Shown here: piece after piece, positions 1 through 7,638 of the stretch | Layout: each line of letters starts with the position of its first letter | Numbering within the stretch: the first letter of the stretch is position 1 | Translations under genes and position numbers: made by a program | DNA from: Symmetrospora coprosmae | Lineage: Eukaryota > Basidiomycota > Cystobasidiomycetes > Symmetrosporaceae | Direction of reading: 5' to 3' | Assembly (NCBI GenBank): GCA_008802785.1 | Contig: VUYT01000004.1 | Span: forward strand, 620,001 to 684,000 | Length of the DNA stretch: 64,000 nt | Notes under the pieces: generated by a model | What the model was told of the DNA's origin: nothing | The model's database searches: none | The model's input: only the letters and a program-made list of their open reading frames with translations

Positions 1-384
1 CCGCCAGACTTGACGGTCTTCAAGTTCTTGCCGATCTGCGGTTCAGGTGTGATTCCAGCGAACGCGACACACAGCAGGCCGTACGGTACTCACGACGTAG
101 ACTTCGCCCGTTGAAGCGGACACAAGCGCGACTCGGATGGATGCTGTCGTTGCGTCCTTTGTCTCGTAGTTGAAGGGCATGCTCTGCCCTGCCTCGACCT
201 GCGTGCCGTTGGCTGGCTGCGAGAGGATGCCATAGTGCTGCGATTGGCTGCCTGAGGCGCCTCGCACGTTGACGTTGACGTGCAGATCGTCGGAGCTGGT
301 GGGGATGGGCGCAGGGATGGGGTTGGCGAGCACAAGTGTTGCTGCGGTCAGGAGCGCGAGTACAGTGATGAAGGATGAATGCAT
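1..384 (-). CDS. Small secreted Kre9/KNH-like protein, array member 1 (partial, runs off left edge)
   Basis: The protein starts MHSSFITVLALL, a clear signal peptide with likely cleavage after VLA before NPIP. Exon 1 (384-94, 97 codons) ends at a GTGAGT donor and exon 2 begins at 35 after a CAG acceptor, reading IGKNLKTV before the edge. The core segment (SQPANGTQVEAGQSMPFNY, then SIRVALVSA) aligns position by position with NTQITPGGTLNFTY and AVRVALVQ in the three downstream genes, and the intron falls at the same place and phase (0). That makes it an older member of the same family. The pattern P-x-N-G-T-x-V-x-x-G resembles the N-terminal Kre9/KNH Ig-like domain of fungal GPI-anchored wall proteins (family knowledge; not searched). 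No GPI signal is visible because the C-terminus is missing. Role in wall or host interaction is inference. Confidence 0.7.
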
Positions 385-1218
385 TGCAGCGAGGGCTGAG
401 ATCGGAACGGAGGGTAGGGAGAGGTGTCTGCGGAGGGGTGCACTCGCGCAACGTACGCCAAGGAGGGGGGTTCGGAGGGTGGGAGGATGGTGGCGAGCTC
501 GAGCGAAGTCAAGAGGCGATCTGCTCCGACCCGAGAGGGCGCACTCGCTGAACGTCCTTACTCGCCCCGACTGCAACTCTGCAGGTCAGCAGGGCAAGTC
601 TCAGTCCTTGGAGGAGGCGGAGGTAGCGATGTCGGACGGTCGTGGCGGTGCCTCGGGGTGCGTCATGCTTCGAGCGGCAGGACCAGCTGAGAGCGCGGAC
701 TTCAGATGCCGTCTGTGCATGGCTATCCGTCTGCATTGGTCATCTGCAGCATTGTGCTGGTTTTGGATCATCGGGTATACAGAAGCCTACCGTCAGCGGC
801 AGCCAGCCTGAGACTGCACCAGCCAAGCGCCTTTGTCTCATCCCATGCTTTTTCTGCATTTGCAGCATATCCAATTCGAGTGTCAGTCTCCCTCATGCGG
901 TGTGGACTTGCTGAAGAGCTGTTCACGAGGCGGGAGGTGTGCATAGTGTCAGTCGTTCCAGCGGTACCCTGGTCAGCGTCACGTTTCGCCGGCTTTACGG
1001 GAACCATTTCATGACAGCTTGTCCGGCATCTCGTTTATGCTGAACGAGTGCAGGAGGAGAGGCGTAGTGGCTACAGGTGAGTTACAGGCGATTGTCCGTG
1101 AGATAGGTGGCGTGGGCTATTCGTAAGAGATATTCATAACTGCTATGCTAGAATGGTTGGGTCGTCAATGAGTCGTCCATGAGCGAACCCCTTGCTGCTG
1201 GCGCTGGGGCTCCCGTGC
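385..1218. other. Intergenic: promoter of member 1, 3' flank of member 2
   Basis: No reading frame here has homology or splice support. The right end, from about 1060, is the start of the block that recurs at about 4950: both copies contain a stretch reading TAGTGGCTACAGG. Confidence 0.5.
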
Positions 1219-1836
1219 TCAGGCGGCGGTGGTGTTGGCCACAGTCACGTATCGCCTGCGCTCATCGTCATCGTCCTCGCCAGGGGCGTGGAACTCAAAG
1301 TCCCAAGAGTCGTACTGTCCATCCTCGTCGTCTCGGTCGTCATCGTCGTCGTCAAGCTCGGAAACGGCGATGACTGCGGGGATGGCAGCGCGAGGAGCTG
1401 GGTCAGGCGGCTGCTCCTCGCTCGACAGTACGGCAGCGCTACTCACGGTAGTTGCCGGCAGTCAGGTTGGCAGGGAGAGCGATCTCTGCAGTGACGAGGC
1501 CGTTGCCATCAGAGCCTCGCGTGGTCGGCAGGTCTCGGGCGATCTATAAGGCGCGTTCGAGAGATCCGTCAGCAGGATCCATTGCAGGAGACGTGATAGT
1601 TCGCGAGAGCGACCCACCTCGAGGATTTGCACAAGAGCCACTCGAACTGCGCGCGCATCATCGTCATCCACGCGGTAGGTGAAGTTCAGGGTGCCTCCCG
1701 GTGTGATCTGGGTGTTGTTGAGCGGGCTGAAGAGGGTGTTGTCCTCGTCGTCGTTGTTCTGGCGGACCTTGAGCAGAGGCGACGCCAGTGCAGTCGAAGC
1801 CGTGAAGGCCGCAAGGAGCATGGTAGAGAATCGCAT
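1219..1836 (-). CDS. Small secreted acid-rich Kre9/KNH-like protein, array member 2
   Basis: Three exons (1836-1618, 1543-1447, 1373-1219) close in frame to 156 residues. Signal peptide MRFSTMLLAAFTASTALA, mature start near SPLLKVRQ. One beta-rich domain follows: N-TLFSPLNNTQITPGG, LNFTYR, AVRVALVQ, IARDLPTTRG, LPANLTAGNY, IAVSELD, then an Asp run and a tail ending RRYVTVANTTAA. The G-G-T-L-N-F-T-Y and A-N-L-T-A-G-N-Y elements fit the two edge strands of the Kre9/KNH domain (family knowledge). Possible N-glycosylation sites are NNT, NFT, NLT and NTT. No GPI or transmembrane end is seen, so the protein is probably soluble and extracellular or wall-trapped. Intron 1 is phase 0 and intron 2 phase 1, as in the paralogues. 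The start is the first ATG after a TATA-like box about 105 nt upstream. Confidence 0.85.
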
Positions 1837-1940
1837 GTTGGCTATATGAGGGAGAGCTGTGGTGTGGGGAGTGTGGAGTGCGTGTGTGGGGAAAGATGTG
1901 ACTGTGTTGAGGAGAGGAGAAAGAAGGGGAAGAAGAGCTG

Positions 1941-1950
1941 GCTTTTATGG
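1941..1950 (-). promoter_or_regulatory. TATA-like element of array member 2
   Basis: On the minus strand this reads CCATAAAAGC, about 105-114 nt before the ATG. It lies next to a purine-poor stretch and is conserved with AGCTC context at member 4 and, more weakly, at member 3. Confidence 0.5.
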
Positions 1951-3035
1951 AGAGACGAAAACCTGTCCCACAGCGTCCAGTCTGTCAAAAGCGGTGCGGA
2001 TGCGGAAATGCCCAGCCGTAACGTCATCCACCCGGTGTGTCACCCTTCCCAGCCAGAAGTCCGCAGGGAGGTGTGCGCTGGAGCTCGGCGCAGACACCGC
2101 ATAGTCACCCATCCGACTGCATTGCCTCAGCTAGTTGCACCACGTTGATGGATCCTTGAGTGCTGTGCACCACAGCCTTGCGAGCTCCCGCCATTCACGC
2201 TTTCTTGATGCGAAGCCGTTAGGCGTTGATCGCGACACGCCAAGGGCTTGGTCCACGAAGAGGGGCACTGAACGCGGTGCTCTCCGGCAGGGGGGGTTGA
2301 CGGGAATAGGTAGAGGATGCAAGGCAGAACAGATTCTCTGCTCGGAGTCGATGCTGGCCGGCTGTGCAGACGCGCGAGCTGGTGCGGTAGGCTGCTGGTC
2401 ACCTCGTTCGGACAGGACGTCCCGTCCCGTGACGCTCGTGCTACGCTTCGTTGCGGTGCAGCGCTGTAGCTCTGAGCTGCGCGCTTGAGGTCGTTCGCTG
2501 AACACGGCACCTCTTCACATCAGCTGTGCATACAGGTTAGGGAAGTCGTCGGTCGCTCGGCTGAGCTACCAGTGCTATTGTAGGCATGTCGAGCAGACAG
2601 CCCCTGAGCGCCTGCGAAGGCAATGCGGAGGTGTGAGCAGGCTGTATGTGGTCGGATAGACCGAGCAGCCTTGAGCGCATTCTACGCATCATAGACAACA
2701 GGCAGACAGTTAGACTCGCGGAGGCAAGATGTCCAAGCAACGGCAATCCTGCGAATGTACCTGAGTCAGTTCGCTCCCACAGCGATTGAGGGTCCCGGCC
2801 CGCCGCTTTGAAAGATAGAACAATGCATACTATATTCGTACGATCTCTACATATATGCGATGATAATGGCTACAAAGGTGGCGCGGATTGTCCTAGACTG
2901 ATGGCCCCACCTGTGCGCAGGACGAAATGCTCGGATCTGGTGTATTTTGCCGTGCTCTCGCCATCTCCGCTATTCCAGGCTGCGCTATAGCTCGTGTGTG
3001 CAGGGGATTTGGCGGTTCACCAGCGCGCTGATTGC
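1951..3035. other. Intergenic between members 2 and 3
   Basis: The left part is promoter sequence of member 2 shared with member 4 up to about 2260. From 2261 to 3035 I see only short overlapping frames on both strands with no codon or homology support, and AT-rich 3' flank of member 3 near 2810-2870. Confidence 0.5.
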
Positions 3036-3756
3036 TCAAGCTGTGGTAGCGTTGGCGACTGATACGAAGACCCGCCGCTCATCGTCGTCGTCGTCTCCAG
3101 CAACCGCTCCTGCAGCACGCGGGTAGTGGAACTCGTATCCCCACGAATCGTATCGACCGTCCTCGTCGTCGTTGTCGTCGCTGTCGTTGTCGAGCTCGGA
3201 CACCGCAATCACTAGGAAAGAAAGAGGCGAATCGACCCCATGAATCAGATGCCGATGCGACGCCGTACATGTACAGGCTCACAGAAGAGCAAGATACTCA
3301 CGGTAGTTGCCGGCAGTCAGGTCAGCGGGGAGCGGGATCTGAGCTGAGACAATGCTGTCTCCGTTGGCGCCGCGGGTAGGCTGGAGGTCACGGGCGATCT
3401 GACATGCGGAGTACACAGAAGGGATCAGCCACATTGGGCAAGCGTCCAGGATGCATACGCGAGGTAGCACTCACTTCGATGATCTGGACAACGGCGACCC
3501 GAATACCGCGGGTCTCAGAGTCGTCAGGTCGGTACGTGAAGTTGAGGGAACCGCCTGGAGTAATCTGGGTGGTGTTGCGGGGGCTGAAGAGCGTGTTGGA
3601 CTCGCGCTCGCGGCTCTCGTTGTCATTGTCGTTATCATTATCGTTGTCATTGTCGTTGTCGTTGTCATTGTCATTGTCGTTCTCCTGGCGCTTGAGCAGG
3701 GGAGACGCAATAGCGGTTGCCGTGAATGCGGCGAAGAGCAGGGTGGCAAATCGCAT
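3036..3756 (-). CDS. Small secreted Kre9/KNH-like protein with Asn-Asp repeat, array member 3
   Basis: Exons 3756-3475, 3398-3302 and 3211-3036 give 184 residues. Signal peptide MRFATLLFAAFTATAIA leads to SPLLKRQEN, where Lys-Arg is a possible Kex2 site that members 2 and 4 lack (LKVRQ, LRVRQ). A tract of alternating Asn and Asp of about 20 residues follows, then the same domain as its neighbours: NTTQITPGG, LNFTYRPDD, IRVAVVQIIEV, IARDLQPTRG, LPADLTAGNY, IAVSELDN and a tail ending VANATTA. The last exon has an inserted HYPRAAGAVAG before the acidic run. Intron phases match the paralogues although intron 2 is longer. Exon 2 has the same 97 nt length in members 2, 3 and 4. Confidence 0.85.
3618..3681 (-). 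repeat. Hexanucleotide repeat coding (Asn-Asp)n
   Basis: A run of AATGAC/AACGAC units on the minus strand lies inside exon 1 of array member 3. Third-position variation (GTC/ATC/ATT on the plus strand) shows it is not a perfect microsatellite, so the amino-acid pattern may be under selection. Members 2 and 4 have only NNDDED at this place. Confidence 0.85.
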
Positions 3757-3883
3757 GTTGGCTAGATGAGGGGAGTTGTGAAAGTGTTCGGGAGGCTTGT
3801 AGTAAAGTATATCTCAACAGTAGTAGTGATGTGTCGATACTTTGAAATGGAAAGAAGAGGAGCGAAGCCAGGAGCAGCGCTGA

Positions 3884-3893
3884 CTTCTATGGC
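3884..3893 (-). promoter_or_regulatory. TATA-like position upstream of array member 3
   Basis: The minus strand reads CATAGAAGTC here, about 130 nt before the ATG, in a context (GCTGACTTCTATGG on the plus strand) that parallels GCTGGCTTTTATGG of members 2 and 4. Confidence 0.3.
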
Positions 3894-5138
3894 CTACACA
3901 GCAAGGAGTAGACGTCATCGGCATCTCGCTGCGAAGAATGTCGGATATTAGAACTTGCTCAGACGCTGCGTCACTCTGCGTGTCATTCACGGTGTCACTG
4001 GCACCGCGCAAACGCCTCGCGGTGCACCCAGTCCTCTCGGGCATTTTAATCCTTGAAATCCGCGCAACGAATTCGGGATGCCAAGCTGCAGCTCCGGAGG
4101 TTTAGAGACTTTCAGTGGCGCGCAGATCCGGCACAGGTACCGCACGGTCGCACGGCTGCAGGAGAGACCATGCAGACGACTCTTATGAGCTCGACGTGTC
4201 AAAAGTAGCATATCCTCTCTTGTGCTGTGTGTCCAGTCATGCACGGTGATGATGGACCAGCTTGAAGTGAGAACAGGCGGAGCGATTCGCAGAAAAGGCA
4301 ATCGACTCGGAGGAGGCGGATTGTGCGGCCAAGACCTTGCGGTGCACAGGTGAACTGCAGCGGTGTTGGCTATGATGCAGTACGGAGGCATCATAGGCGC
4401 ACCGCGCTCGCGTGAGGCCGGAAAGTGCCACTGCTCTGCGTGCTCAGGTCAAGTTGACTCCTGGTTGTTGCAGACGCGAAGCCTGCACAGAGTCGGCAGC
4501 GAGCCATCTGGAGGCGAGGACCCCTGCGGCCGTGCTCCCAGCTGCACCAAGATACGGCAGAGGCCCCGCGTGCCGTCATCCGCCGAGTCCTTCGGCTGTG
4601 CTGCTGACGGCAATGCCTCGATGCGGCTGCTGTTGCTGCTCTATACGGCTCTGCACTCTTGCTGTCCACTCGAGAGCGCAGGCTAGGCTGACTCAGGATG
4701 GCTGTAGAACTTGCATCACAGATCCCTGATCTTCGTGAAACGCAGTCGTGTCGAAGGCGGATACAAGCTTAGCAAGGGTCAGAGCCGAAGAGCTGTCACG
4801 ACAAGGGAGCCTTGAACATGTCGGCCGCGGCGATGCTTTGGTAAGCGTCAGTCCTTCGCCCCGGCTTCGCAGCCGCAGCTTGGTGAGAGGACAAAGTATG
4901 GTAGCGCTGCGCGGCGTTCACTTCACACTGGCTCGTTGCAGTGGTTCGAGAGGAGTAGTGGCTACAGGAGACATACAGGCAATTGTCCGTCTGCGAGGGT
5001 TACTTCAACTACTCGTATCGGATATTTATGACTGATACGCTGGTCGGGTCATAAAAGCTTCTCAGGCGCTACTTGTAGAGTCGAGCTTTCTCCATAGGCA
5101 AGGCTCTTGCTGCTGGCGCTTGTGGCTGCCCGGGCTTA
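3894..5138. other. Intergenic between members 3 and 4
   Basis: Several open frames of 60-135 codons overlap on both strands but none has splice or family support. The right end from about 4950 is the downstream flank of member 4 and belongs to the duplicated block. Confidence 0.45.
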
Positions 5139-5749
5139 TTAGGCGGCAGTGGTATTGGCCACAGTGACGTATCGCCTGCGCTCACCATCGTCGTCCTCGC
5201 CAGGTGCGTGGAACTCAAAGTCCCACGAGTCGTACTGTCCGTCCTCGTCGTCTCGGTCGTCGTCGTCGTCGAGCTCGGAAACGGCGATGACTGCGGGGAT
5301 GGCAGCGCGAGGAGCTGGGTCAGGCGGCTGCTCCTCGCTCGACAGTACGGCAGCGCTACTCACGGTAGTTGCCGGCAGTCAGGTTGGCAGGGAGAGCGAT
5401 CTCTGCAGTGACGAGGCCGTTGCCATCAGAGCCTCGCGTGGTCGGCAGGTCTCGGGCGATCTTTAAGGCGCGTTCGAGAGATTCGTCAATAGACCTCTCT
5501 ACAGGAGATATGCTCGCAAGAGCGACTCACCTCGATGATCTGTACAAGAGCTACTCGAACAGCGCGCGCATCGTCATCGTCCACGCGGTAGGTGAAGTTC
5601 AGGGTGCCTCCCGGGGTGATCTGGGTGTTGTTGAGCGGGCTGAAGAGGGTGTTGTCCTCGTCGTCGTTGTTCTGACGGACCCTGAGCAGAGGCGAGGCCA
5701 GTGCGGTCGAAGCCGTGAAGGCCGCAAGGAGCATGGTAGAGAACCGCAT
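5139..5749 (-). CDS. Small secreted acid-rich Kre9/KNH-like protein, array member 4
   Basis: Exons 5749-5531, 5460-5364 and 5290-5139 give 155 residues, nearly identical to member 2 (same signal peptide; mature start SPLLRVRQ; one Asp fewer in the acidic run; GDDDGERRR in place of DDDDERRR). The exon 2 acceptor is AAG rather than the TAG of member 2. An open frame extends upstream of this ATG to 6268, but that part holds the TATA-like box and the promoter shared with member 2, so I take the internal ATG at 5749. Role is probably the same as for member 2; redundancy or dosage is inference. Confidence 0.85.
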
Positions 5750-7601: not shown

Positions 7602-7638
7602 ATCCAGCAGCAGCAGCATCAGCAGCAGCAGCAGCATG
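7602..7638 (+). repeat. CAG microsatellite in RDS3 3' flank
   Basis: An interrupted run of CAG units lies about 35 nt after the RDS3 stop and before the next gene, so it is probably in the 3' UTR. Confidence 0.8.

What the first reader, a model, noticed from the sequence alone, without database searches (positions are those of the whole stretch)
1..5749. Tandem array of four small secreted Kre9/KNH-like proteins with acidic and repeat inserts
Four genes in a row on one strand share signal peptide, a single compact beta domain, N-glycosylation sites and (where visible) two introns at the same places and phases. They carry lineage-specific inserts: an Asp run of 4-6 in the last exon of two members and an Asn-Asp tract of about 20 residues in one. 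No long Ser/Thr stalk or GPI end is seen, unlike typical wall proteins with this domain. The combination looks like a compact family of secreted acid-rich proteins, perhaps metal-binding or wall-associated. The comparison is seen in sequence; the domain name rests on family knowledge; function is inference.
Basis: partly seen in the sequence, partly recalled or inferred. Interest (0 to 1): 0.72.

Follow-up and report, generated by a model that had tools for sequence, protein, structure and literature searches.

The report
Four tandem small secreted fungal proteins
Four neighbouring fungal genes descend from one ancestor and appear to encode small secreted proteins, three of them very acidic; they look like ordinary surface or extracellular proteins, and what they do is not known.

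Summary
The array is real. Four minus-strand genes (A-D) each have a signal-like N-terminus and two introns at aligned positions in phases 0 and 1. Gene A runs 389 bases past the window edge and was completed from the adjoining contig. All four are homologous: A scores 104-107 against B, C and D, shuffled means 24-26. Genome searches with A, C and D found significant matches only at this locus. B, C and D are under purifying selection (dN/dS 0.04-0.14). B and D share a 191-base identical tract covering intron 2 and exon 2, best explained by gene conversion.

The domain name is weakly supported. No Pfam family reaches its cut-off. A gives a sub-threshold Kre9_KNH match (E 0.015), B and D a sub-threshold bacterial Ig match, C nothing Ig-like. 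Some shuffled sequences give E-values as low. The genome holds a genuine Kre9/KNH GPI-type protein elsewhere, whose first intron is in a similar place and the same phase.

'Acidic' fits B, C and D (pI about 4, net charge -19 to -24) but not A, which is neutral with a Cys-rich tail. Part of the acidity looks like repeat slippage. Most likely these are small secreted wall or matrix proteins with a divergent Ig-like fold. Interest is modest.

The parts
94..384 (-). Gene A exon 1 (signal-like N-terminus and first half of domain)
   Evidence: Splice model; protein homologous to B-D
1..35 (-). Gene A exon 2, part inside the window; it continues 62 bases to the left, and exon 3 (Cys-rich tail) lies at C44:619612-619865 outside the window
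   Evidence: genome search
1618..1836 (-). Gene B exon 1
1447..1543 (-). Gene B exon 2
1219..1373 (-). Gene B exon 3 with a 6-Asp run; includes the stop codon
3475..3756 (-). Gene C exon 1, including the 21-residue Asn-Asp tract
3617..3681 (-). 6/12-base microsatellite that encodes the Asn-Asp tract of C
   Evidence: Tandem Repeats Finder; codons
3302..3398 (-). Gene C exon 2
3036..3211 (-). Gene C exon 3 with a 5-Asp run; includes the stop codon
5531..5749 (-). Gene D exon 1
5364..5460 (-). Gene D exon 2; its intron 1 ends in the unusual acceptor AAG
5139..5290 (-). Gene D exon 3 with a 5-Asp run; includes the stop codon
1355..1545 (.). 191-base tract identical between B and D (B side): start of exon 3, intron 2, exon 2 and two bases of intron 1
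5272..5462 (.). The same 191-base tract, D side

Best explanation
A locus-restricted tandem family of four small secreted proteins. SHOWN: common descent (sequence homology plus two shared introns), purifying selection among B, C and D, a B/D conversion-like tract, strong acidity in B-D, and a near-neutral Cys-rich-tailed A. INFERRED: the proteins enter the secretory pathway and lose a signal peptide; C may then be cut after Lys-Arg. They fold as a single divergent Ig-like beta sandwich, distantly related to Kre9/KNH N-terminal domains. They act outside the cell as soluble wall or matrix proteins. In B-D the Asp-rich loop before the last strand and the acidic tail give a strong negative charge, which most likely holds the protein by ionic contact to cationic partners (calcium, chitosan or basic proteins).
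For: Exon models and intron phases. Homology of A to B, C and D: scores 107, 104 and 104 against shuffled means of 24-26, 0 of 500 shuffles each. dN/dS 0.039 for B/D, 0.129 for B/C, 0.135 for D/C. B/C introns are 47-52% identical while B/C exons stay at 72-74%. 22 of 30 acidic residues of D that align with C are acidic in C. All genome matches at E below 0.01 in searches with D, A and C lie in this array. Of the four sub-threshold Pfam matches at E below 0.1 for A and the isolated domain of D, three are Ig-like sandwich families (Big_7, MG2, Kre9_KNH; partly recalled) and the fourth is DUF4625, whose fold I did not check. The genuine KNH gene on C11 has a phase-0 intron at about the same point as intron 1 (read by eye).
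Against: No family passes its cut-off for any member. The isolated domain of C gave 0 families, and full-length C only unrelated weak hits. Shuffled controls reach similar E-values in 2 of 10. The beta-periodicity measure does not beat shuffles for D (168 of 500), C (217 of 500) or A (65 of 500), but does for the known KNH protein (10 of 500). Profile comparison with the KNH protein gives only 15.9% probability. The profile search of solved structures gives 0 matches. No ligand binding was tested. Part of the acidity looks like repeat slippage: C's tract is a microsatellite and D's last-exon run is five identical GAC codons. The models of B and D need an uncommon donor and an uncommon acceptor.
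Confidence: 0.5

Rival explanations
1. True Kre9/KNH family members that lost the Ser/Thr stalk and GPI anchor and now act as soluble wall-glucan helpers.
For: Sub-threshold PF10342 match of A over profile positions 1-75 of 94. The confirmed KNH protein of the genome has a phase-0 intron near the same place (by eye). A against the KNH protein: 9 of 500 shuffles reach the score.
Against: 0 of 4 proteins over the cut-off. C and D against the KNH protein are reached by 354 and 74 of 500 shuffles. The second introns do not coincide (phase 1 in the array; phase 2 in the KNH gene and later in the protein; by eye). The PF10342 search of the genome did not pick up the array even at E 10.
Confidence: 0.3
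2. Secreted proteins aimed at another organism (apoplastic effector-like small secreted proteins), tandemly duplicated and diversifying.
For: Small, signal-bearing, tandem, no recognisable domain, strong divergence of A from the rest. PF10342-type proteins from several fungi triggered cell death in a test plant, 18 of 50 cloned genes (PMC8079714, section 8 read).
Against: B, C and D evolve under purifying, not diversifying, selection. B and D are nearly identical proteins. The lifestyle of the fungus is unknown here. Nothing ties the genes to a host.
Confidence: 0.2
3. The Asp runs and the Asn-Asp tract are neutral repeat expansions in permissive loops and do nothing; only the core domain matters.
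For: C's tract is a 6/12-base microsatellite and is absent from B and D. The last-exon Asp runs of B and D differ by one codon, and D's is five GAC in a row.
Against: Acidity is kept between C and D (22 of 30 aligned acidic positions) although synonymous sites are near saturation (dS about 1.3). The runs of B and the exon-1 runs of B and D mix GAC and GAT.
Confidence: 0.35
4. An orphan family with a beta-rich fold unrelated to Ig-like sandwiches.
For: No match over cut-off in Pfam, no profile match in PDB sequences, shuffled controls equal A's weak hit.
Against: Landmarks such as Pro, Gly, Phe-x-Tyr, Pro-Ala and Gly-x-Tyr recur in A-D in an order that I associate with such domains (recalled, not tested).
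Confidence: 0.25

Closest known systems
[quoted passage not shown] U. virens SGP1)
   Same: Signal-like N-terminus, one domain of about 80-90 residues in the N-terminal part, phase-0 intron at about the same place as in the KNH gene of this genome.
   Different: Below the family cut-off; no Ser/Thr stalk or GPI tail; acidic loops in three members; Cys-rich tail in A.
Big_7 (bacterial Ig domain)
   Same: Weak profile matches for B and D over most of the profile.
   Different: Below the cut-off; the family is named for bacteria; not found for A or C.
Fungal small secreted proteins without a known domain (orphan SSPs)
   Same: Size, signal-like N-terminus, tandem duplication, restriction to one locus in this genome.
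   Different: Many described SSPs are Cys-rich (recalled); B-D have no Cys and are highly acidic.

Membership tests
Kre9/KNH-like domain (PF10342) | Profile score above the curated cut-off (24.6 bits) | tested here: not met
   A 16.5 bits; B, C and D not listed for this family; positive control from the same genome 32.1 bits
Kre9/KNH-like domain (PF10342) | Ig-like beta-sandwich fold | not testable with these tools
Kre9/KNH-like GPI wall proteins | Ser/Thr-rich stalk and C-terminal GPI signal | tested here: not met
   B and D end in NTTAA, C in NATTA, A in a Cys-rich tail; the C11 protein has a hydrophobic tail. Judged by eye, no GPI predictor
Kre9/KNH-like domain (PF10342) | Shared intron position with a bona fide member | tested here: inconclusive
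   Intron 1 is phase 0 in both and within about one residue, depending on the alignment; intron 2 differs (by eye)
Fungal small secreted proteins | Under 300 aa with a signal peptide | tested here: inconclusive
   155-213 aa; the N-termini look like signal peptides by eye, but no predictor was run. The size limit is as given in the abstract opening of PMC7105643 (search listing)
One tandem paralogue family | Significant homology and shared introns among A-D | tested here: met

The most novel reading that the evidence does not exclude
A lineage-specific secreted sandwich protein whose Asp-rich loop is a calcium- or chitosan-binding site kept acidic by selection while its sequence drifts by repeat slippage, with gene conversion keeping two copies matched: a fungal soluble polyanionic matrix protein.
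Probability: 0.12. Interest if true: 0.5.

Novelty: new member of a known kind. Interest (0 to 1): 0.22.

Why it matters
If the acidic loops bind calcium or chitosan, this would be a compact example of how a wall-type domain becomes a soluble polyanionic matrix protein. As it stands it is a clean small case of tandem duplication with a conversion-like tract and repeat slippage in a probably secreted protein family, and it shows how a recalled domain name can outrun the evidence.

Tried and rejected
Tried without result: the profile of the four proteins against PDB sequences (0 matches); D alone against PDB (2 matches, best E 0.14, an ARID4A chain matched partly in an acidic stretch, rejected); relatives in prokaryote genome contigs (40 pattern matches, 0 confirmed) and viral contigs (39 pattern matches, 0 confirmed). 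These collections are not fungal, so the absence says little about other fungi. PF10342 across the own genome gave no hit at E 0.001 and one at E 0.0068, which proved to be a KNH/GPI-type gene. A weak hit of C on C17 (E 0.54) was not followed up because it is not significant. The beta-periodicity test was uninformative for the array. Literature: seven answered searches. None of the listed titles or abstract openings described this family; most papers were seen only as search listings. Passages were seen in PMC3253089, PMC4649063, PMC2409186, PMC9973262 and PMC11446221, and passages plus section 8 in PMC8079714.

Considered and rejected: an EF-hand-like reading of the loop with DDEDG (the positions do not fit, by eye), and a GPI anchor for B-D (no hydrophobic end).

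Species: not identified; no fungal reference collection was available.
Full report
What is there. The window has 56-62% G+C in 2-kb steps and lies in a 20.05-Mb genome of 77 contigs at C44:620001-684000. It reads as fungal (intron-bearing genes, fungal protein types; inference). On the minus strand at the left edge are four genes in a row. I call them A (nearest the edge), B, C and D. B, C and D were modelled from the window alone: 156, 184 and 155 aa, three exons each, intron 1 in phase 0 (74, 76 and 70 bases), intron 2 in phase 1 (73, 90 and 73 bases), donors GTGAGT or GTGGGT. A is cut by the window edge. With the adjoining contig DNA it becomes a complete 213-aa gene with introns of 58 and 73 bases, again phases 0 and 1. 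The spliced coordinates give back the stated proteins for 4 of 4 genes. One caution: a mechanical enumeration limited to common donors and [C/T]AG acceptors listed two-intron models for C only. B needs donor GTGGGT and D acceptor AAG, so those models lean on homology.

One family. In the four-way alignment both introns fall at the same aligned places. B is 98%, C 70% and A 28% identical to D. A is nevertheless a true relative: local scores of 107, 104 and 104 against B, C and D, shuffled means 24-26, 0 of 500 shuffles reaching each. In genome searches with D, A and C every match at E below 0.01 lies within C44:619615-625756. Weaker ones were A/C cross-matches in the array (E 0.017 and 0.11) and one C17 match at E 0.54. 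These are exon-by-exon searches that score only the best candidates, so distant copies could be missed.

Evolution. Nei-Gojobori estimates: B/D dS 0.22, dN 0.009, ratio 0.039 (22 synonymous, 3 nonsynonymous changes); B/C 0.129; D/C 0.135. A against the others gives ratios of 0.60-0.71, but synonymous sites are near saturation there. B/C exons are 72-74% identical while introns are 47-52% and upstream DNA 45%. So B, C and D are maintained as coding genes. B and D share an exact 191-base tract (1355-1545 and 5272-5462) that covers intron 2 (73 of 73 identical) and exon 2, whereas their intron 1 is 77% identical. With mismatches shuffled along the gene, 0 of 20,000 shuffles gave so long a run. 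The shuffle ignores uneven constraint, but the identical intron speaks for gene conversion or a recent exchange.

The inserts. Asp runs in the last exon are 6 (B), 5 (C) and 5 (D). Shuffles of each mature protein reach those lengths in fractions 0.0022, 0.0129 and 0.0088 of 20,000. C has a 21-residue Asn-Asp tract (0 of 20,000) encoded by a 6/12-base microsatellite at 3617-3681. The Asp codons mix GAC and GAT in most runs, but D's last-exon run is five GAC and C's is four GAC and one GAT, which fits slippage. Mature B, C and D (cleavage site placed by eye) have a computed pI near 4.05 and net charge -21, -24 and -19; A has pI 6.5, charge -0.8 and 10 Cys. Of 30 acidic positions of D aligned in C, 22 are acidic in C; of 29 aligned in A, 7. 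In D the densest acidic stretch of the five segments that I counted is residues 112-124 (9 of 13 residues), which I take for the loop before the last strand. Acidity is therefore a property of B-D, not of the whole family.

Is it Kre9/KNH? Tested and not met at the family's own threshold. Pfam gave no family over its cut-off for any of the four proteins. Sub-threshold: A to Kre9_KNH E 0.015 (16.5 bits, cut-off 24.6) and DUF4625 0.13; D to Big_7 0.035 (0.014 for the isolated domain) plus DUF4625 and, for the isolated domain, MG2, Wzt_C and Alph_Pro_TM; B to Big_7 0.029, DUF4625, Alph_Pro_TM and an astrovirus capsid family; full-length C only to SPT8 propeller (0.061), FAM176 and NOA36, and its isolated domain to none. 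As a control I scanned ten shuffled domains: 0 of 5 with D's composition had any hit at E up to 1, but 2 of 5 with A's composition had hits, three families at E 0.009-0.02, unrelated to Ig folds as far as their names tell. So A's match is not evidence on its own; the D-type matches are slightly better supported. A positive control exists. The genome's only PF10342 candidate (C11, E 0.0068) splices to a 200-aa protein with a hydrophobic C-terminus, typical of GPI-type KNH proteins (recalled), and scores 32.1 bits. Against it the array aligns weakly: A reached by 9 of 500 shuffles, D by 74, C by 354 (B was not tested); profile comparison 15.9% probability. Its first intron, read, is phase 0 just before a segment resembling that after intron 1 of A; its second intron is elsewhere and in another phase. 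My reading is a distant relation to Ig-like domains, KNH possible, not proven. A beta-periodicity measure separated the known KNH protein from shuffles (10 of 500) but not D (168), C (217) or A (65 of 500), which counts mildly against. No structure prediction was made, since the tool admits only proteins read directly from DNA without splicing.

How it might work. Shown: paralogy, conserved reading frames, acidity. Inferred from sequence: secretion (hydrophobic N-termini ending in Ala), possible Kex2-type cleavage of C after Lys-Arg (recalled motif), N-glycosylation at 4-5 sequons in B-D. Inferred and untested: an extracellular wall or matrix role, with the acidic loop giving ionic binding to calcium, chitosan or basic proteins. 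PF10342-type proteins are reported in secretomes (passages of PMC3253089, PMC4649063, PMC9973262, PMC11446221) and as plant-recognised proteins (passages and section 8 of PMC8079714). One of these papers says evidence for relevance to pathogenicity is lacking (PMC11446221, passage). That is context, not evidence for these genes.

Surroundings. To the right, open-frame pieces from about 6858 on look like a PHF5A-like zinc-finger protein (recalled similarity, no search). Of the 16 stop-to-stop frames of at least 330 aa I scanned 10: six matched over cut-off (BRAP2, M48 peptidase, Svf1, an AAA helicase, rhodanese, an FMN oxidoreductase), one matched MFS_1 below cut-off, and three had no match. 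I did not search the rest of the window for other secreted proteins.

Verdict. Real, coherent, under selection, and ordinary in kind: a small tandem family of probably secreted proteins with no secure domain. The acidic, conversion-linked copies are a mild curiosity.

Noticed in passing
1355-1545 and 5272-5462: 191-base identical tract shared by genes B and D, including a whole intron, inside otherwise diverged copies: likely gene conversion across the intervening gene C.
   Followed up: yes
5461-5530: Intron 1 of gene D ends in AAG where B has TAG; D's correct splicing needs RNA evidence.
   Followed up: no
L018 (G000 C11:1573722-1576892), gene at about C11:1575147-1575917: The genome's only PF10342 candidate at E up to 10 in an exon-level search: a KNH/GPI-type protein over the Pfam cut-off once spliced.
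   Followed up: partly
C44:619612-620384 (window 1-384 and the contig to its left): Gene A has a Cys-rich C-terminal part (10 Cys in the mature protein) where its paralogues have acidic stretches.
   Followed up: partly
7605-7636: CAG triplet repeat of about 10 units.
   Followed up: no
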